Below are positions 49,497 to 64,000 of a stretch of 64,000 nucleotides of DNA, in pieces (the stretch's first letter is position 1; each line of letters starts with the position of its first letter). A program made the translations under genes and the position numbers. Under the pieces are notes generated by a model that saw nothing but the letters and a program-made list of their open reading frames with translations, searched no databases and was not told the origin of the DNA. Location: positions 558,001 through 622,000 of the forward strand of contig CAJJCY010000004.1 of the NCBI GenBank assembly GCA_905182865.1, given 5' to 3'. The stretch comes from an uncultured SAR324 cluster bacterium. GTDB taxonomy: Bacteria > SAR324 > NAC60-12.

Positions 49497-49619
49497 TTTT
49501 AAAGAGTAGTAGGGAGTGATTATTCTTCCATGAAACAAGGTTACAATTCCTTTTATCTCAAACTCCCTTCCTAATTCTTATTTTCCTAATAATTCTGGAT
49601 GTCCTTCTATAGATTAGTT

Positions 49620-49931
49620 TTAACCTATAAATTTCATCATAAAATTATCTAAGAATTCAGAATCAGAAGATTCAATAAATTTATCCGAAAAACTCTTATC
49701 CTTATCTCCAAGTATTCCAGTTGATACAATCAATTTGATAAACTCACGAATACCTTCGTTCTTTATCTGAAGAACATCCTCGACTGTCAAATCAAAATCC
49801 TGACCCATTTTTTCTAAGGTTGTTTTGGGTTTCCCACCCAATCCAAAATACATCCTAAGAACATTCTCTTGTATCTTAGAGAGTCCTCCGAATAATGTCA
49901 GAATAGATTCTTCTTTTTGTGAAATATCCAT
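49620..49931 (-). CDS. 103-aa protein with sigma70 region 4-like helix-turn-helix
   Basis: KIQENVLRMYFGLGGKPKTTLEKMGQDFDLTVEDVLQIKNEGIREFIKL aligns by eye with region 4 REREVLRLRFGLG..RTLEEIGxxFxVTRERVRQIExxALRKL. Confidence 0.65.
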   Translation of the reverse strand: MDISQKEESILTLFGGLSKIQENVLRMYFGLGGKPKTTLEKMGQDFDLTVEDVLQIKNEGIREFIKLIVSTGILGDKDKSFSDKFIESSDSEFLDNFMMKFIG

Positions 49932-49962
49932 TTCCTTTTATTTCTAATTCCCTTCCTAATCT

Positions 49963-50065
49963 TTATGAAAAAAAGACCTCTGTTAAAAAATATATACCTT
50001 CAAGTATTAATATGATGATCAGAAAGAGTTTCCATTTTATATTAAATCAAACTCTACAGAAAACT
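49963..50065 (-). pseudogene. Remnant of the 'RRSLRT' gene 3' end plus its hydrophobic peptide
   Basis: Reads DGEFSVEFDLI* then (ATA)KWKLFLIIILILEGIYFLTEVFFS*; same length as the intact 25-aa peptide at 51109-51186 but start is ATA. Confidence 0.6.
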
Positions 50066-50175: not shown

Positions 50176-50484
50176 TTATTTCCATGCTCCAAATTTAAAG
50201 GTAATTTGGTAGGGAGGAGAACTCGTTTCGATACAATAATTTGACTGATTTTGTATTAACCATTCTTCAACAAGTTCTCGAAGGCAACCGTCTAACAGCT
50301 CTTTATCTTCATCCGTCATCTTCAACATGTTGATTTGCGTTCTAAAGTCACCAACGAAACCGTCTTGAATTTTTTCAAAGAGTTTCTCAATTTCCTCATC
50401 AATATTCTTTTTTCCAATGGAATTATTGATACTCCAGTTCTTTCCAAATTGATTTACATAATTCCGAAAATCATCTCTTAGCAT
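50176..50484 (-). CDS. Hypothetical 102-aa protein
   Basis: Uninterrupted ORF MLRDDFRNYVNQFGKNW..; no family recognised. Confidence 0.45.
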   Translation of the reverse strand: MLRDDFRNYVNQFGKNWSINNSIGKKNIDEEIEKLFEKIQDGFVGDFRTQINMLKMTDEDKELLDGCLRELVEEWLIQNQSNYCIETSSPPYQITFKFGAWK

Positions 50485-50926
50485 GTTCTCTCCGTTTATA
50501 TTTACAATTAATTCCTTAATAATTCATTTTTGATATTTTTCCCACTCTATTTTTGCAGATTATTCATTCGTAGTATCCACTTTTATGAATATCAAATATA
50601 AAACAAACTAACATTTTATAAAGCAAACAAGATTATTACATTTCGTAATCTCGAACCTAATTGTACAAAATATGAGTCTAATTGTTACTGCCGAAATATT
50701 TTCTGTAAATCAGACCAGATATTGTCGCAAGAAGGGTTGAAGCAGGAACGGTTGTTATTTTAGGTGGTGCTGTTGATAGATTGATTATTCTATTAGATTA
50801 AGTTGAAATTATTTTTAGTAGAAGAGAGTGAATATTCTTCCAATGAAACGAGGGGACAATTCCTTTTATCTCTCAAATCCGGACAATGATAACCACTGAC
50901 TAATAGACTGGCGCATGTCTTTTTCA

Positions 50927-51103
50927 TCATCTATTATCACAATTTTTATGATACATTAACTTTTTTAAAGGAATTATCATAATTACTATTATCCATTCCC
51001 AATAATTTATTTCTCTAAAAGTTCTATGGAATAAAAGTCTATTTGTTAAATAATATATCCCCTCAAGAATAAATATAATGATTAAAACTAGTCTCCAATT
51101 CAT
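50927..51103 (-). CDS. 58-aa small membrane protein
   Basis: MNWRLVLIIIFILEGIYYLTNRLLFHRTFREINYWEWIIVIMIIPLKKLMYHKNCDNR*; N-terminus homologous to the 25-aa peptide 5 nt upstream. Confidence 0.55.
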   Translation of the reverse strand: MNWRLVLIIIFILEGIYYLTNRLLFHRTFREINYWEWIIVIMIIPLKKLMYHKNCDNR

Positions 51104-51108
51104 AATCT

Positions 51109-51186
51109 TTATGAAAATAAGAACTCTGTTAAAAAATATATTCCTTCAAGTATTAATATAATGATTAGAAAAAGTTTCCATTTCAT
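51109..51186 (-). CDS. 25-aa hydrophobic peptide
   Basis: MKWKLFLIIILILEGIYFLTEFLFS*; starts 1 nt after the stop of 51188-51499. Confidence 0.6.
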   Translation of the reverse strand: MKWKLFLIIILILEGIYFLTEFLFS

Positions 51187-51187
51187 A

Positions 51188-51499
51188 TTAATTATCAAAC
51201 TTTACAGAAACCTCACCATCTATTACATTCGTTGAAATGAAACTTGGTTGAGAAATTGACTCTTTATTTTGGACAATCCATCTGCCTTCAAGTAGTCCAG
51301 ATTTAGTCTCATATACCTTCTTCAACATTTCTTTTTCATCGTCAAATGCTTCTTCCTTTGGAGGACTCTCAGATTCTACTTTACCGTTGATTACACCTTC
51401 AAAGGTTCTGAGTATAAAGACCTCCTTAACTTGTCCGTATTCAATTCTGACGGTGCGCAAAGACCTTCTATAAGGTGATGTGAAGTAGAGTTCTCTCAT
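51188..51499 (-). CDS. 103-aa 'RRSLRT' family protein, copy 1
   Basis: MRELYFTSPYRRSLRTVRIEYGQVKEVFILRTFEGVING..; paralog of 61589-61909; overlaps upstream ORF by 4 nt. Confidence 0.7.
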   Translation of the reverse strand: MRELYFTSPYRRSLRTVRIEYGQVKEVFILRTFEGVINGKVESESPPKEEAFDDEKEMLKKVYETKSGLLEGRWIVQNKESISQPSFISTNVIDGEVSVKFDN

Positions 51500-51798
51500 C
51501 CAATAACCAATTTCAAATCTACTTTAAGTTCATTCCAGTTAATTGGGTATTTAATAACCTTAGAACAATGTTTGTGTAATAAACTTGCTTCAAATGGTTT
51601 CCCATTTTTAATTTCTCCTACATATGTCCAATTTATTTTATCATTAGCATTCTCAAACCATCCAAATCTACCATTAACTTTTTTAAAATATAAATCACCT
51701 GACTCCTGAGCTACCAGTGGGAAAGTCAGAAAAAGGAGGGAGAGAAGTATGAGTATATGTTTCACATGATTTACTTTTTGGGGTTTATGGCAATCCAT
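51496..51798 (-). CDS. Exported MORN-family-related protein (short)
   Basis: HVKHILILLSLLFLTFPLVAQESGDLYFKKVNGRFGWFENANDKINWTYVGEIKNGKPFE; same leader and first domain as the 56870 gene. Confidence 0.7.
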   Translation of the reverse strand: MDCHKPQKVNHVKHILILLSLLFLTFPLVAQESGDLYFKKVNGRFGWFENANDKINWTYVGEIKNGKPFEASLLHKHCSKVIKYPINWNELKVDLKLVIG

Positions 51799-51805
51799 AA
51801 TACTT

Positions 51806-51859
51806 ACATCAATTGGTTTGTTTTACAAGAATTGGAGATATTACGGAGGTTGTCAGACT
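51806..51859 (-). repeat. Dispersed repeat/promoter unit, minus-strand copy
   Basis: Reverse strand AGTCTGACAACCTCCGTAATATCTCCAATTCTTGTAAAACAAACCAATTGATGT, upstream of the minus-strand 51798 gene. Confidence 0.7.
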
Positions 51860-56869: not shown

Positions 56870-58117
56870 ATGAAACATCTACTCATCGTTCTCTCAATCC
56901 TTATTCTTTCTTCTCCTGTGATGGCAGATGAAACTGGTGTTTTGTTTTTTCGTGAAGTGAATGATAAATGGGGATGGTTTGAGGATGGTAATAAGGATAG
57001 AGATGTAAAATATATAGGAGAATTAAAGGATGGAATTTTTGAAGATAGACAACCAAATGGTCAAGGAACAATCACTTACCCAAATGGGAAAAAATATGTT
57101 GGGGAATGGAAGAATACAAAAAAACATGGTCAAGGAACAAAAACATGGTCTAATGGAGACAAGTATGTTGGGGAATACAAGAATGGGGAATATCATGGTC
57201 AAGGAACATTCACTTGGAATGATGGTCACAAGTATGTAGGTGATTACAAGGATGGAAAGAAAAATGGACAAGGAACAGTAACTTACCCTGATGGAAGGAA
57301 GTATGTTGGGAAATACAAGGATAGACTTCCTAATGGTCAAGGAGCCCTTACTTCACCTGATGGCAGAAAATATGTAGGAGAATTCAAAGATGGTAAACCA
57401 AATGGTCAAGGAATCCTGACTTTCCCAGATGGAGAAAAGTTTGTTGGGGAATACAAGGATGGAGAAAGGAATGGTCAAGGAACATACACTTGGTCTGATG
57501 GAAGAAAGTATCTTGGGGAATGGAAGGATGGGAAATATCATGGTAAGTGGCTGCAATTAATTATGAAGTAAGTATGTTGGGGAATGTATATATGGATTCA
57601 ATGACTACAACCACTGTTTAAAGCTGATGAATGGTCAATAAGTATGTCGGGGAATACAAGGATGGACTTCCAAATGGTCAAGGAACAATCACTTACCCAA
57701 ATGGGAGAAAGTATGTAGGTGAATACAAGGATGGAGAAAGGAATGGTCAAGGAACATTAACTTGGTCTAATGGGAAAAAATATGTTGGGGAATGGAAGGA
57801 TGGGGAAATGAGTGAACAAGGAACAAAATCTTGGACTAATGGAGACATGTATGAAGGAAATTTTAAGGATGGGAGATATGATGGTCAAGGTACATACACT
57901 TGGTCTGATGGAAGAAAATATGTTGGGGAATGGAAGAATGGGGAAACAAAACGGTCATGGTACTGTCACTTCACCCTATGGAAAGTATGTCGGGGAATGG
58001 AAGGGGAATGATTTTCACTGTCAAGGAACCATGATTTCTACTGATGGGACAAAATTGGTAGGTGAGTTAATGGAAAACAAACGGTGGAAGAGCATCAGGG
58101 AATATGACAACAACTGA
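56870..58117 (+). pseudogene. Exported MORN-repeat protein(s), interrupted near 57550-57630 and 57950
   Basis: Leader MKHLLIVLSILILSSPVMA; about 23-aa MORN units YVGEWKDGKxHGQGTxTWxDG; ORFs 56870-57571, 57631-58011, 57812-58117. Confidence 0.8.
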
Positions 58118-58190
58118 ACAATCCACAGGTAAATATGTGAATGGAGAACTAATAAAACAATAAACCATCCCTAAAACAAACCAATAAATT

Positions 58191-58730
58191 ATGAAACACC
58201 TTCTCATCATCCTCATTTCAATCCTTCTTCTTTCTTCTCCTGTGATTGGAGATAATCATAAAGGTGAAACTCTTTATGGATGGATTACTTCTTCTTCTAC
58301 TTTAGAGTGGAAAACTTTTGGAGAAAAAGGAACTCACCCAATTTATAAAGGGGATGTTGAGAATGGGAAACCAAATGGTCTTGGTGTTATTACATTCCCT
58401 GATGGAAGTAAGTTTGTAGGAGAACACAAGGATGGGGAAAAGAATGGTCAAGGAATATTTACTTTTTCTTGCACCTTTTTTTGCAGGCGGGTTGGAACAA
58501 AAAAACATGGTCAAGGAACAGAAACTTACCCTAGTGGAAGTAAGTATGTAGGAGAATGGAAGAATGGGAAAAAGAATGGTCAAGGAACATTCACTCAATA
58601 TAGTTCTCTCCTTTACCCTGATGGAAGAAAGTATGTGGGGGAATACAAGAATGGGAAAGAGTGGAACGGAACATATTACGACAATTACGGAAAAAAAGAA
58701 TACAAGTTGGTGAATGGAGAAATAGAATAA
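58191..58730 (+). CDS. Exported MORN-repeat protein
   Basis: Leader MKHLLIILISILLLSSPVIG; MORN units. Confidence 0.82.
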   Translation: MKHLLIILISILLLSSPVIGDNHKGETLYGWITSSSTLEWKTFGEKGTHPIYKGDVENGKPNGLGVITFPDGSKFVGEHKDGEKNGQGIFTFSCTFFCRRVGTKKHGQGTETYPSGSKYVGEWKNGKKNGQGTFTQYSSLLYPDGRKYVGEYKNGKEWNGTYYDNYGKKEYKLVNGEIE

Positions 58731-58863
58731 AATAATACCCCTACCTAAAACCAACCAATAAACTATGAAACACCTACTCATCCTGCTCTCAATCATTCTT
58801 CTTTTTAATTCTCCTCTGTTTCGACATTACCATTTTGACTCACCAAATATGTAAAGGAATCAA

Positions 58864-59051
58864 ATGAATAGTATTAAAGGTGTTTTATTTTTGAAGAATG
58901 TAGATGGAGAAATGAAATGGGTTAATGGAGATTTAGGTAATAAAGGGAAATATGAAGGAGAAATTGAAAATTGGGAACCAAATGGAATGGTACAGTATAT
59001 GACAATGACGGAATTAAGAAATCGAAGTATGTAAATGGAGTAAAACCGTAA
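58864..59051 (+). pseudogene. Short MORN-family fragment
   Basis: MNSIKGVLFLKNVDGEMKWVNGDLGNKGKYEGEIENWEPNG.. then frame change to WNGTVYDNDGIKKSKYVNGVKP*. Confidence 0.5.
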
Positions 59052-59563
59052 TGAAACACCTACTCATCCTCATCTCAATATTTCTTCTTTCTTCTCCTGT
59101 GATTAGTCAGGAAACTGGTGTTCTTTATCTGTATAAAACATCTTCTGGGAATAAATGGGAAACTTTTGGAGATGGTAAAGTTCAACCAAAATACAAGGGA
59201 GAAATAAAGAATGGGAAACCTAATGGATTTGGTTTTCAAACTTACAAAAATGGAAACAAGTATTTTGGGGAACACAAAAATGGATTACCAAACGGTCAAG
59301 GGAAATCCATTTACCCTGATGGGAGTATGTATTTAGGAAAATATAAGGATGGTAAATTCCATGGACAAGGAACTTTCATTTGGAATGATGGATATTATCA
59401 TGAAGGGGAATTTATGGATGGAACACCAAATGGTCAGGGAACTGAGACTTTACCTAATGGACAGTTGGTAGGGGAATATAAGGATGGTAAACCTTTGAAC
59501 GTTAAAGGGTACGACAAAGAAGGAAACATCATTGGAAAGTGGGTGAATGGAGTAAAACAGTAA
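59051..59563 (+). CDS. Exported MORN-repeat protein
   Basis: Leader MKHLLILISIFLLSSPVISQETGVLYLYKTSSGNKWETFGDGKVQPKYKGEIKNGKPNGFG; MORN units. Confidence 0.85.
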   Translation: MKHLLILISIFLLSSPVISQETGVLYLYKTSSGNKWETFGDGKVQPKYKGEIKNGKPNGFGFQTYKNGNKYFGEHKNGLPNGQGKSIYPDGSMYLGKYKDGKFHGQGTFIWNDGYYHEGEFMDGTPNGQGTETLPNGQLVGEYKDGKPLNVKGYDKEGNIIGKWVNGVKQ

Positions 59564-59588
59564 TGACCCCTACAAAGAATAAACCTAA

Positions 59589-59634
59589 TCATCTCCTGTG
59601 AGTAACCACCCACTTAGTTCTTACAAGTCAGACA
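59589..59634 (+). repeat. Dispersed hairpin repeat, copy L
   Basis: CATCTCCTGTGAGTAACCACCCACTTAGTTCTTACAAGTCAGACA, then CATGTAAAACAAACCGATTGATG at about 59654. Confidence 0.75.
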
Positions 59635-60111
59635 ATCAACACAAACCTCCCCTGTTCATGTAAAACAAACCGATTGATGAAACATTTTGTACTAAAATGT
59701 GGAATTATTGGGAATAAATGACCAAAAGGCAAATTTGGTCTTTAAGGTATGAAACAATACTCAAAGGGATGATGAATGAAAGTTGATACTTTAATCATCA
59801 TCCCTAAGAACTAACCAAATTAAGGAAGGATTTAATCAGTCGTGAGGATGTTCATATCAGCATCCTCAAACAACTTTCCTTACCAGAAAATGGAAATTAA
59901 TGACTAATGGCAACAGAGCCGGTACAGGAGATCTGTATAACATGTTAGACAAACTCAACAAATTAATTGAAGAGTGGGACAACTAATTATTAAAACCCCC
60001 TTATAGACTTATACTATTCCTTAAAAAACTTCCAAGTAAAATCTGAACTTCTTGAAAAACAAAACGATTTATGTTATAAAATTAGTACTTTTAATCAACT
60101 AAAGTAAACCT

Positions 60112-60438
60112 ATGAAACATATACTAATCATCCTCTCTCTCATTCTTCTTTCTTCCCCTCTGTTTGGGCAGTCTGATGCTAATGATAAAGTAATTCGATA
60201 TAAGATAACTTCTGGTTTATTGTGGAAAAGCATTAGCAAAGGAGAAATACAATCAAAAAATATGGGTTATGTTGGTTCATATAAATCTGGAGTACCTCAT
60301 GGTAAAGGAACAATGACTTATTATGATGGCAGGAAAATAGTAGGCGAATTCAAGCGTTATGCATGGAATTCTAAATTTTATGATAAAAACGGGAAAATAC
60401 TTGGAAATTTTGTGAAAGGGAAATACATAAAAGAATAG
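60112..60438 (+). CDS. Exported short MORN-family protein
   Basis: MKHILIILSLILLSSPLFGQ; YVGSYKSGVPHGKGTMTYYDGRKIVGEFK. Confidence 0.75.
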   Translation: MKHILIILSLILLSSPLFGQSDANDKVIRYKITSGLLWKSISKGEIQSKNMGYVGSYKSGVPHGKGTMTYYDGRKIVGEFKRYAWNSKFYDKNGKILGNFVKGKYIKE

Positions 60439-60643
60439 ATTATTACAAAATAAAACTTCAAAATAAGCAATAATGAGTCTTTGCTATTATTTTAAATATA
60501 ACATGCCCATTACCGTCACGTGTTTTTTAAAATAGCATAAAAGGAGATGAAAACAATTTCATATTTAAAATATCAAATACGGGAACATATATAACTAGGA
60601 CCAAACTATCTCCTATTTACTGGGGATCTTAAAACAAACTCCA

Positions 60644-60672
60644 TAATCTCCTGTGAGTAACTCCCACTAACT
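60644..60672 (+). repeat. Dispersed hairpin repeat, copy M (right arm lost)
   Basis: AATCTCCTGTGAGTAACTCCCACTAAC. Confidence 0.6.
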
Positions 60673-60794
60673 TTTTCCTCCACATTACCACCCCTTCCTT
60701 TCAAAAGTTACACAGTCTAGTAAAACTAATCCTTTGATGTTATACTTCGGATTAACCGATGATTTAATTTAAACCAAAACTAAGGGAGTTAATT

Positions 60795-61059
60795 ATGTTG
60801 TTTCATATTCAATCAACTCACTCATATAAGACTTGTGGTGCAAACGACCCAGAGAAAAAGAAAATCATGAGAAGTGCTTTTCTTAGTGCTGAGGAAAAAG
60901 GTATTAAAATTCATTCTCTGGTAGTGAATAGACCATCTCATACTGTTTACATGGTTGCTGAGTCAGAAACATTTGAGGAACATTGACAAAATGTTTGAAC
61001 CAATACTGACAATGACTGATGCTATAATTACTCCAGTTATGCCTATGACTTTAGATTGA
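60795..61059 (+). CDS. Small cytosolic protein (about 87 aa), one frameshift near 60983
   Basis: MLFHIQSTHSYKTCGANDPEKKKIMRSAFLSAEEKGIKIHSLVVNRPSHTVYMVAESETFEE-IDKMFEPILTMTDAIITPVMPMTLD* after removal of one C. Confidence 0.65.
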
Positions 61060-61103
61060 GAAGGTGTTTACTTCTACCGAACACTTCATTGAAGAAGAAC
61101 CAA

Positions 61104-61493
61104 ATGTCTAAAATAAAAGGTGTTCTATATCATATTGGTGGAAGATTGCGGGACGATAAAGGTTGGTCTGAAAAAGAATCTGACAATCCACCAGATAAGT
61201 TTTGGGAAGGTGAGATTGAAAATAAACTACCCAATGGTTTTGGAACATACACTCATAGGAGTGGTTCAAACTATGTCGGACAATACAAAGATGGTCTAAG
61301 AGAAGGTCAAGGGACTTGGACTCTATACGATGGGAGTAAATTTGTTGGTATTTGGAAAAATAATAGAAAATGGAAAGGAAAGTCATTTGATGAAGAAGGT
61401 AAGGAAATTGGAAAATATTTAAATGGAGAACTTGAAGATAATGATGAACCACTAACTTTAATTAATGCACAAAGTAAAGGACACTTTTCATAA
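61104..61493 (+). CDS. MORN-repeat protein without signal peptide
   Basis: MSKIKGVLYHIGGRLRDDKGW..NGFGTYTHRSGSNYVGQYKDGLREGQGTWTLYDGSKFVGIWK. Confidence 0.8.
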   Translation: MSKIKGVLYHIGGRLRDDKGWSEKESDNPPDKFWEGEIENKLPNGFGTYTHRSGSNYVGQYKDGLREGQGTWTLYDGSKFVGIWKNNRKWKGKSFDEEGKEIGKYLNGELEDNDEPLTLINAQSKGHFS

Positions 61494-61588
61494 ACAATAA
61501 TTACCCTTCCGCATTTTCTTCCGACACTATCACCACATTGCGGAAACCAATTAGACATTTTATACAAAAATCCCATCACAAATGAATA

Positions 61589-61909
61589 ATGAATCAGATT
61601 TATTTTGTCTCATCTTACAGGAGAAGTTTAAGAACAATTCATTTCCAATATGGTAGTTTTGGTAAAAGGTTCATTCTCAAAATAACTTCTGGTGAAATAA
61701 ATGGAAGAGGAACAATTGAAGGGAATACTGAAGAAGTGGTATTTGAAGGGGAGCAGGAACTTCTAAAAGGGGTCTATGAGAGAAAGAAGGAATTACTTGA
61801 TACAAAGAGATGGGAAATAACTGAAAAACAATCAGCAACCCAACCATCATTTATTTGTAATGATTTGATTGATGGTAAAATAACAAATGATACTTGGTGG
61901 GAAAATTGA
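61589..61909 (+). CDS. 106-aa 'RRSLRT' family protein, copy 2
   Basis: MNQIYFVSSYRRSLRTIHFQYGSFGKRFILKITSGEINGRG..; paralog of 51188-51499 along its length. Confidence 0.7.
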   Translation: MNQIYFVSSYRRSLRTIHFQYGSFGKRFILKITSGEINGRGTIEGNTEEVVFEGEQELLKGVYERKKELLDTKRWEITEKQSATQPSFICNDLIDGKITNDTWWEN

Positions 61910-61911
61910 AA

Positions 61912-61995
61912 ATGAGAAATAGAAGAACCATCATAATCATAGGTTCTATACTTGTAATAATGTATTTACTTTCACATCTACAAGAGTTTCTATAA
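61912..61995 (+). CDS. 27-aa hydrophobic peptide
   Basis: MRNRRTIIIIGSILVIMYLLSHLQEFL*; begins 2 nt after the 61909 stop, syntenic with 51109-51186. Confidence 0.5.
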   Translation: MRNRRTIIIIGSILVIMYLLSHLQEFL

Positions 61996-62208
61996 TGGAT
62001 TAACGAATAATTAACTATATTATCCGCAAACATCCTCCGTATTATTTTAGTATTTCCTCAAAGTCTCCGTATATGCGGAAACTATATCAGTAAGAAGTAT
62101 AATATTCCGCATATTTGGTGTTCTCTGCGTAAACCTTCCTATATTCTTGTAAAATCCTGCAAGTTCTGGTATATATTGGGTTCTACTAATCCACCAAAAG
62201 GAAACCAA

Positions 62209-63484
62209 GTGAAACATCTACTCATCGTTCTCTCAATCCTTCTTCTTTCTTCTCCTGTGATGGGAGAGAAAACTGGTGTTCTCTATCAATATAAAACTTC
62301 TTCTGGTTTAGTATGGAAAAGTGTTGGAAGTGAAAAACTACAACCAAAATATGAGGGACAAGTTGAAAATGGAACACCTAATGGACAAGGGACAGTCACT
62401 TCGTCTGATGGAAGTAAGTATGTTGGGGAATGCAGGAATGGGAATTGGAATGGTCAAGGAACATACACTTTCAATGATGAAAGAAAATATGTTGGGAATT
62501 GGATAGATGGAGGACAAAATGGTCAAGGAACACTTACTTCACCAAATGGAGATAAGTATGAAGGAGAATGGAAGGATGGATTACCAAATGGGAAAGGGGT
62601 GTTCACTTTTGGAAAAGTGAAATGGGAAGGAGACAAGTATATAAGAGAACACAAGAATGGGGAAAAACATGGTCAAGGGACTCTAACTTCACCTGATGGA
62701 GACATGTATGAAGGAAAATTTAAGGATGGTAAATATGATGGTCAAGGAACATACACTTGGTCTGATGGTAGAAAATATGTTGGGGAATGGTTAGAAGGGA
62801 AACAAAACGGTCATGGTACTGTCACTTCACCCGATGGGAAATATGTCGGGGAATGGAAGGGGAATGATTTTCACGGTCAAGGAACCTTGATTTCTACTAA
62901 TGGGACAAAATGGGTAGGTGAGTTCAGTAAAAACAAACGGTGGAACATCAGGGAATATAACAACAACGGAAACTTCACTACTGAGTGGGTGAATGGAGTA
63001 GAACAGACTGGAATAAAATGGAAAACTTTTGGAAATGAGAAAGTCGTACCAAAATATGAAGTTGAAAAAAAGAATGGCAAGGAGTGGAACACCAAACATA
63101 ACAAAAAAAGATGGAAAACTTTTAGGGAAGTTTGAGAATGGAGACTGGATAGTAAGTTGGGGAGTATTAGATTATTTTGATGAAAGTTATAAATTTTACC
63201 TTAAAGATTCAGATTTGATCGAGCCAAATATGACTTACACTGATGGAGTGAAGTATGTAGGGGACTACAAGGATGGGAAAAGACATGGTCAAGGAACATA
63301 CACTTTTCCTGATGGGAAAAAGTATGTTGGAGGATGGAAGGATAGTAAATATCATGGTCAAGGGACATTAATTTCGTCTGATGGAAAATTTTTTGTTGGG
63401 GAATTCAAAGATAGTAAACCTTGGAACATTACTGGATACGACAAAAATGGAAACATCAAAAGAAAGTGGCTGAGTGGTAAATAG
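62209..63484 (+). pseudogene. Exported MORN-repeat protein, frameshift near 63100
   Basis: Leader VKHLLIVLSILLLSSPVMGEKTGVLYQYKTSSGLVWKSVGSEKLQPKYEGQVENG; ORFs 62176-63135 and 63029-63484 both with MORN units. Confidence 0.82.
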
Positions 63485-63540
63485 ATAAAACAATAACCTC
63501 CTTAAAACACCCCAATTCATCAAATGTTATTTACCCTCAA

Positions 63541-63600
63541 CTTAATTCTTCACAAGTCAGACACTCCTCCAAGTAAAATCTCCACATTCTTGTAAAACAA
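63541..63600 (+). repeat. Dispersed repeat/promoter unit, copy N (left arm missing)
   Basis: CTTAATTCTTCACAAGTCAGACACTCCTCCAAGTAAAATCTCCACATTCTTGTAAAACAA. Confidence 0.8.
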
Positions 63601-63618
63601 ACCGATTGATGTTATATT
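63590..63618 (+). promoter_or_regulatory. Candidate promoter of the last MORN gene
   Basis: TTGTAA-17-TATATT. Confidence 0.5.
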
Positions 63619-63653
63619 CGTGGTTCTCCTAAAACCACCAAAAAGAATCAAAA

Positions 63654-64000
63654 TGAAACATATTCTCATACTAATTTCTATCTTTCTTCTTTCTTCTCCT
63701 CTGTTTGGACAGTCCAAGAAATCAGGTCTTTTATACATTTGGGAAAATGGATCGAGGTATGTTGGTGAATGGAAAGATGGTAAAAAACATGGTCAAGGAA
63801 CATACACTTCTGGAAAAGGGGAAGGGGAAGGAGACAAGTATGTAGGAGAATTCAAGGGTGGATTTAAAAATGGTCATGGAAAATATATTTGGTCTAATGG
63901 AGACGAGTATGTAGGGGAATTCAAAGATGATAAACCAAATGGTCAAGGAACATACACTTGGTCTGATGGAAGAAAGTATGAAGGGCAATTTGAGGATGGA
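63654..64000 (+). CDS. Exported MORN-repeat protein, runs off the window end
   Basis: MKHILILISIFLLSSPLFGQSKKSGLLYIWENGSRYVGEWKDGKKHGQGTYTSG... Confidence 0.82.

What the first reader, a model, noticed from the sequence alone, without database searches (positions are those of the whole stretch)
50927..51798. Candidate novel module: MORN-type protein + 103-aa 'RRSLRT' protein + 25-aa hydrophobic peptide
Minus strand: exported MORN-like ORF (51496-51798) overlaps the 103-aa ORF (51188-51499) by 4 nt; 1 nt after its stop starts MKWKLFLIIILILEGIYFLTEFLFS (51109-51186), then 5 nt later a related 58-aa membrane ORF (50927-51103). The tiny ORFs are below the supplied ORF cutoff. Tight coupling and recurrence (see the 61 kb copy) suggest a functional unit, for example a small-membrane-peptide effector with a cytosolic partner. 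The function is unknown.
Basis: partly seen in the sequence, partly recalled or inferred. Interest (0 to 1): 0.72.

Follow-up and report, generated by a model that had tools for sequence, protein, structure and literature searches.

The report
Remnant of tyrosine-recombinase mobile element
The three-gene "module" is the worn tail end of a mobile DNA element: a piece of its DNA-integrating enzyme fused by accident to an exported-protein gene, followed by a small partner gene of unknown family and tiny membrane peptides that recur in shuffled order behind such enzymes in related bacteria.

Summary
The ORFs and spacings are as described, but the "MORN-type" gene is a chimera. Its front is a MORN-family promoter and signal peptide. 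Its last 36 codons are the 3' end of a tyrosine-recombinase gene (60% identity over 54 aa to a nearly complete recombinase in a sister species). In relatives the 103-aa gene lies directly behind tyrosine recombinases (7 copies, an eighth likely), often translationally coupled, and three of these elements sit beside tRNA genes (SeC, Ala, Leu). So the window copy is the 3' remnant of a tRNA-type integrative element.

The 103-aa family is genuine (dN/dS 0.12 in the best pair), matches no known family and has a beta-rich predicted fold. The hydrophobic peptides show codon-level constraint, but are several unrelated types, follow only 6 of 12 complete 103-aa copies, and also sit behind recombinases without the 103-aa gene. 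An obligate toxin/antidote pair is therefore unlikely.

Most likely role (inferred): the 103-aa protein is a recombinase-coupled accessory, working like GinD/Srap/TnpC but with no homology shown; the peptides are cargo. A folded ~67-nt repeat on the stop codons of unrelated genes in these arrays is undescribed and is the most interesting loose end.

The parts
51496..51798 (-). Chimeric 100-aa ORF: MORN-family signal-peptide front (family-like start is GTG at 51765) fused in frame to a tyrosine-recombinase C-terminus
   Evidence: no Pfam match
51496..51605 (-). 3' end of a tyrosine-recombinase gene (remnant; ends ...KPFEASLLHKHCSKVIKYPINWNELKVDLKLVIG)
   Evidence: 82% DNA identity to G001; tblastn E 3e-12, 60% identity over 54 aa
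51188..51499 (-). 103-aa 'RRSLRT' protein gene, starts at the ATGA overlap with the recombinase-tail stop codon
   Evidence: purifying selection in the family
51109..51186 (-). 25-aa hydrophobic peptide (pepB type)
   Evidence: third-position excess of differences between copies
50927..51103 (-). 58-aa ORF; its start is a tandem duplicate of the pepB peptide
50812..50894 (-). Folded repeat 'RepA', left arm eroded
50176..50484 (-). 102-aa ORF; a close homologue lies behind a RepA copy in G010 contig 84
49953..50078 (-). Decayed second copy: 3' end of the 103-aa gene plus pepB (start codon lost)
   Evidence: 90% DNA identity to 51099-51220
49894..49967 (-). Partial RepA
   Evidence: Weak model match E 0.006
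49620..49931 (-). 103-aa orphan sigma-70 region-4-like ORF between two RepA copies
49500..49582 (-). RepA
61589..61909 (+). Second 103-aa-family gene (106 aa)
61912..61995 (+). Hydrophobic peptide of another type (pepA, MRNRRTIIIIGSILVIMYLLSHLQEFL), homologous to one that overlaps recombinase genes in G001 and G014

Best explanation
The unit is the 3' remnant of an integrative mobile element of the tRNA-targeting, single-tyrosine-recombinase kind. The intact order seen in relatives is: tRNA gene, recombinase gene, then (often overlapping the recombinase stop codon by ATGA) a 103-aa gene and/or small membrane-peptide genes, then a folded repeat. In the window the recombinase is lost except for its last 36 codons, which a short-homology recombination (near GGGAAACCA) joined in frame to the front of a MORN-family exported-protein gene. 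Shown: the chimera, the recombinase linkage, tRNA adjacency in three relatives, mosaic exchange at the recombinase/103-aa junction, and coding constraint. Inferred: the 103-aa protein is made in fixed ratio with the recombinase by translational coupling and acts with it in integration or excision; the membrane peptides are exchangeable cargo.
For: Recombinase tail fused in the window ORF. Nearly complete Phage_integrase protein (PF00589, E 1.9e-9) followed by pepA, the 103-aa gene and the start of pepB in G001. Intact or broken recombinases or their tails directly before the 103-aa gene in c4, c5, c6, c7 and G015. tRNA-SeC, tRNA-Ala and tRNA-Leu just upstream in G001, C3:155 kb and G015. Modules exchanged at the ATG: c4 is 92% identical to c7 upstream but 64% downstream, and 62% to c1 upstream but 84% downstream; G001 and G014 share pepA but not the recombinase tail (59%). 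The same ATGA coupling point is used by the 103-aa gene, pepA, a pepB-like peptide and another TM peptide. Relative G005 shows the AI-2E gene without this unit behind it; homology stops at 51853. 103-aa dN/dS 0.12-0.39. An 83%-identical copy on a contig labelled Flavobacteriales suggests horizontal movement.
Against: No repeat of a tRNA 3' end was found at a far boundary in the DNA held, so no element has been delimited. Several related recombinases have no 103-aa gene behind them, so it is not required by all. Four 103-aa copies (c2, c3, G007, G019) have no recombinase tail directly upstream. The accessory role rests on position and analogy only. The Flavobacteriales-labelled contig could be a binning or assembly chimera, since the gene lies at its end.
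Confidence: 0.72

Rival explanations
1. The 103-aa gene is ordinary cargo, not a recombination partner: one of several small genes (HAD phosphatase, 102-aa, sigma-4-like, membrane peptides) that happen to be captured behind the recombinase.
For: Gene content behind the recombinase is mixed and shuffled; some recombinases lack the gene; 103-aa copies also occur without a recombinase (c2, c3, G007, G019).
Against: It is the commonest first gene behind this recombinase type in the window's genome (c1, c4, c5, c6, c7), with start-stop overlap in c1 and c5, and is under purifying selection.
Confidence: 0.45
2. Toxin-antitoxin or addiction unit: the hydrophobic peptide is a type I-like membrane toxin and the 103-aa protein (or an antisense RNA) restrains it, stabilising the element.
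For: Peptide lengths (25-47 aa), a basic N-terminus and one hydrophobic stretch match membrane-associated type I toxins (usually under 60 aa, PMC8309996); tandem duplication of pepB; codon constraint; presence on mobile elements.
Against: The pairing is not obligate: 6 of 12 complete 103-aa copies have no peptide behind them, peptides are unrelated families, and they occur without the 103-aa gene. No antisense RNA was identified here; the window locus itself was not scanned against Rfam.
Confidence: 0.12
3. One reading: MORN-type protein, cytosolic partner and membrane peptide acting together.
For: Tight spacing in the window copy.
Against: The MORN front and the recombinase tail meet at 51605-51607 and the recombinase tail continues to the stop codon. 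No other 103-aa copy has a MORN-leader/103-aa overlap.
Confidence: 0.03

Closest known systems
tRNA-targeting integrative elements / genomic islands with one tyrosine recombinase
   Same: Phage_integrase-type recombinase starting just downstream of a tRNA gene (SeC, Ala, Leu) and reading away from it, with variable cargo behind it
   Different: Far ends not located; unknown 103-aa gene and tiny membrane peptides coupled to the recombinase stop codon; many copies are remnants
GInt islands (ginABCD; PMC5385486) and strand-biased circularizing elements (intA-tfp-intB-srap; PMC10214605)
   Same: A small uncharacterised gene follows the last recombinase gene, with likely translational coupling in SEs, and in GInts cargo starts right at its stop codon; [quoted passage not shown]
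   Different: Those have three recombinase-fold genes, here one. GinD is modelled with a helix-loop-helix end; the 103-aa model is beta-rich with one long helix. Tfp-Srap blocks are reported only from Gammaproteobacteria
Tn554 TnpC
   Same: Small accessory protein behind tyrosine recombinases; TnpC stimulates integration and sets orientation (as cited in PMC5385486)
   Different: No sequence match of the 103-aa protein to any Pfam, NCBIfam or PHROG family; single recombinase here
Membrane-associated type I toxins (Ibs, ShoB, ZorO, Fst; PMC8309996)
   Same: Length, hydrophobicity, tandem copies
   Different: No antisense RNA identified; tightly spaced behind a recombinase or 103-aa gene instead of being a free-standing gene
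Integron gene cassettes with attC
   Same: Small genes in one orientation, many followed by a folded repeat at the stop codon
   Different: Repeat lacks the RYYYAAC...GTTRRRY boxes as read by eye; recombinases lie at tRNA genes; cassette excision not shown

Membership tests
tRNA-targeting tyrosine-recombinase integrative element | Tyrosine recombinase gene | tested here: met
   PF00589 in G001 and C2:748 kb proteins; in the window only the C-terminal 36 codons remain
tRNA-targeting tyrosine-recombinase integrative element | Recombinase beside a tRNA gene | tested here: met
   tRNA-SeC (G001), tRNA-Ala (C3:155 kb), tRNA-Leu (G015); no tRNA in the window itself
tRNA-targeting tyrosine-recombinase integrative element | Direct repeat of the tRNA 3' end at the far boundary | tested here: inconclusive
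   None found within the stretches held; contigs too short or decayed
GInt / SE element | Three adjacent recombinase-fold genes before the small gene | tested here: not met
   Only one recombinase ORF before the 103-aa gene in G001, C2:748 kb and C3:155 kb
GinD / Srap / TnpC protein family | Sequence homology of the small protein | tested here: inconclusive
   No significant Pfam, PHROGs or NCBIfam match; no direct comparison with GinD, Srap or TnpC sequences was made
WGR-domain protein | Sequence profile match to PF05406 | tested here: not met
   No Pfam hit; profile comparison score 11.3, below column-shuffled controls up to 21.7
WGR-domain protein | WGR fold | tested here: inconclusive
   Model pLDDT 73.6; PARP2 gives TM 0.42 and a phage WGR protein TM 0.57 at E 0.049; no hit at E <= 0.001
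Type I toxin-antitoxin system | Small hydrophobic single-TM peptide | tested here: met
   Hydropathy 2.0-2.5 over 17 residues, 25-58 aa
Type I toxin-antitoxin system | Antisense RNA antitoxin and toxicity | not testable with these tools
   Needs transcriptome and expression tests
Protein toxin-antitoxin pair (103-aa + peptide) | Conserved pairing of the two genes | tested here: not met
   6 of 12 complete copies lack a downstream peptide; peptides occur without the 103-aa gene
MORN-repeat protein (51496-51798) | MORN repeat (PF02493) | tested here: not met
   No Pfam match; the 61056-61493 ORF does match
Integron cassette array | attC with RYYYAAC/GTTRRRY boxes | tested here: inconclusive
   Boxes not seen by eye in the RepA copies; no formal attC model was run

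The most novel reading that the evidence does not exclude
A non-integron gene-cassette system: tRNA-resident tyrosine recombinases, together with the 103-aa accessory protein, shuffle tiny cassettes (membrane peptides, HAD phosphatase, sigma-4-like protein, glycosylase) whose 3' ends carry a folded ~67-nt recombination site (RepA) placed on the stop codon.
Probability: 0.12. Interest if true: 0.85.

Novelty: new variant of a known kind. Interest (0 to 1): 0.47.

Why it matters
It shows that an apparent three-gene module arose by accidental fusion, and gives a way of recognising such remnants. It identifies an undescribed small protein family coupled to tyrosine recombinases, comparable in position to GinD, Srap and TnpC, with microproteins exchanged at the same coupling point. 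If the folded repeat proves to be a recombination site, it would be a cassette-shuffling system outside the known integrons.

Tried and rejected
Toxin-antitoxin pair: demoted because pairing is not conserved. MORN-module: rejected because of the chimera. WGR-domain membership: suggested by predicted secondary structure and weak fold hits, but the profile comparison was below shuffled controls. Integron attC: boxes absent by eye. Rfam on six loci carrying the repeat: no match near threshold. Viral, phage and plasmid collections: no relative of the 103-aa protein. 16S for naming the host: none in this assembly; the phylum has only 52 held genomes in what looks like one class, compatible with SAR324, untested. 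PADLOC: one weak Cas9 hit (E 0.0014) in one member, taken as chance. tRNA 3'-end repeats to delimit an element: none found. The first script counting hydrophobic ORFs used too high a threshold and was redone.

Full report
NAMES. c1 = window 51188-51499; c2 = window 61589-61909; c3, c5, c6 = contig C2 at 746, 748 and 745 kb; c4, c7 = contig C3 at 131 and 155 kb; G-numbers are other genomes (G001-G016 same genus, G019 same family).

OBSERVATION. All four minus-strand ORFs are present with the stated spacings. The 58-aa ORF begins with a tandem duplicate of the 25-aa peptide. Short hydrophobic ORFs by themselves are not surprising in this AT-rich DNA: two observed, 0.84 expected from shuffled sequence, 0.62 per kb across the window. 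The weight therefore falls on comparison with relatives.

THE MORN GENE IS A CHIMERA. DNA homology to the window's MORN genes covers 51607-51832 and stops; homology to a sister species' recombinase gene covers 51494-51605. The protein tail KPFEASLLHKHCSKVIKYPINWNELKVDLKLVIG matches ...KPFEPSILQKHCSNNISYPINWKNLKVDWKLIIG, the C-terminus of a tyrosine recombinase in G001 (tblastn E 3e-12). That protein matches Phage_integrase. The join lies in a short shared sequence (GGGAAACCA in the window ORF; a near-identical stretch in the recombinase), so an illegitimate or short-homology exchange is likely (inference). In relative G005 the DNA downstream of the AI-2E gene matches the window up to 51853 and then differs, so the whole unit is most simply an insertion behind that gene.

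WHERE THE 103-AA GENE LIVES. The window's genome holds seven copies plus fragments, several with stop codons. The family occurs in 8 of 52 held genomes of the phylum. No relative was found in IMG/VR, phages or plasmids. One 83%-identical copy lies at the end of a contig labelled Flavobacteriales that also carries RecF, DciA and NDK genes: either horizontal transfer or a chimeric contig. A tyrosine recombinase or its tail precedes the gene in c1, c4, c5, c6, c7, G001 (with pepA between) and G015; the Flavobacteriales-labelled contig shows only 11 bases, which fit. It does not in c2, c3, G007 and G019. In G001, at c7 and in G015 the recombinase or its remnant starts shortly downstream of tRNA-SeC, tRNA-Ala and tRNA-Leu. 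This is the layout of tRNA-targeting integrative elements. No far boundary was found.

MODULARITY. Recombinases of the '...IIG' tail type end in TTGGATGA (ATAGGATGA in c5), and the next ORF starts at that ATG: the 103-aa gene (c1, c5), pepA (G001, G014), a pepB-like peptide (C3:150 kb) or another TM peptide (G001 contig 131). Identity jumps at this junction: c4/c7 92% upstream and 64% downstream; c4/c1 62% and 84%; c5/G001 contig 131 84% and 53%; G001/G014 share pepA but only 59% upstream. In c2 pepA follows the 103-aa gene; in G001 it precedes it. So genes behind the recombinase are exchanged as modules.

ARE THE SMALL GENES REAL? The 103-aa gene: dN/dS 0.12 (c6 v G007, P 1e-7) to 0.39. Peptides: 42 of 78 differences at third codon positions in a chosen set of pairs (P 1.5e-4); pepB pairs 28 of 48 (P 3e-4). 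Some pairs share sequences, so these P values are optimistic. Individual peptide pairs are often not significant.

PAIRING. Of 12 complete or near-complete 103-aa copies, a hydrophobic ORF follows in c1, c2, c4, c5, c7 and (cut by the contig end) G001; none follows in c3, c6, G007, G015, the Flavobacteriales-labelled contig and G019. Peptide types differ, and peptides occur behind recombinases with no 103-aa gene. This argues against an obligate effector/antidote pair.

FOLD OF THE 103-AA PROTEIN. AlphaFold with three sequences: residues 1-80 are fairly confident, beta strands followed by one long helix; the last 22 are of low confidence. No significant fold hit; PARP2 WGR (TM 0.42) and a phage WGR protein (TM 0.57) are among weak hits. 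A profile comparison with 18 WGR domains was below shuffled controls. A DNA-binding WGR-like fold is a lead only.

MECHANISM. Most likely the 103-aa protein is made together with the recombinase and assists it. Analogous small genes behind recombinases are ginD in GInts (PMC5385486), srap in SEs (PMC10214605; [quoted passage not shown] Shown: linkage, coupling geometry, selection. Inferred: function. I give the element-remnant reading about 0.9 and the accessory role about 0.4; plain cargo is about as likely.

THE FOLDED REPEAT. A ~67-nt repeat (RepA) with a 9-13 bp outer stem, an inner GAGG/CCTC hairpin and a conserved UUUCAU-GGAAGAAUA strand occurs 11 times in the genome at E <= 0.01, all in four clusters that also hold 103-aa or recombinase remnants. 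It is found in 10 of 17 genomes of the genus and in none of the other 35 phylum genomes searched. Of 23 copies, 15 begin near the stop codon (-37 to +7 nt) of a same-strand ORF of at least 60 aa, none of an opposite-strand one. Seven of those 15 follow one conserved 105-aa gene, so the 15 are not independent; the others follow a 103-aa-family gene (G007), the sigma-4-like gene, and unrelated ORFs of 65, 123/124, 127, 159 and 167 aa. Outer-stem bases co-vary (GTT/AAC with GAT/ATC). No Rfam match. In the window three such repeats (one weak) alternate with small genes at 49.5-50.9 kb. It may be a recombination site, a terminator-like signal or a passive repeat.

Noticed in passing
window 49500-49582, 49894-49967, 50812-50894 (-); L073-L101 in relatives: Undescribed folded ~67-nt repeat (RepA) starting at the stop codons of unrelated same-strand genes, genus-restricted, clustered with recombinase remnants; some copies look like left-only or right-only halves.
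   Followed up: partly
L080, L082, L083, L089, L093, just right of RepA: A second conserved stretch AAGGACTTGCAG-GGGTGTGTATA...TATTCACACC (imperfect inverted repeat) follows RepA in several loci.
   Followed up: no
window 56870-63999 (+) and C3:151-155 kb, C2:326-329 kb: Expanded family of exported MORN-repeat proteins with a shared promoter-like leader (TTGTAAAACAAACCGATTGATGTTATATA) and signal peptide MKHLLI..LSSPV, at the same islands as the recombinase remnants.
   Followed up: partly
window 28130, 32970, 35390, 39440, 41140, 43715, 54571, 56344, 60649: Dispersed ~46-nt intergenic repeat TCCTGTGAGTAACYCCCACTAATTCTTC..CAGTCAGA seen many times across the window and in L015.
   Followed up: no
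L025:1-1438 (CATMIT010000071.1): 103-aa gene 83% identical to the window copy, 5 nt before a 369-aa ORF whose C-terminal part is a low-molecular-weight phosphotyrosine phosphatase, on a contig labelled Flavobacteriales.
   Followed up: partly
L028:4755-5572 (G015): tRNA-Leu followed by an apparently internally deleted recombinase whose tail leads into a 103-aa gene that lacks one continuous frame; its 3' part reads on into RepA.
   Followed up: partly
window 49620-49931 (-): Orphan sigma-70 region-4-like protein (103 aa) sitting between RepA copies.
   Followed up: no
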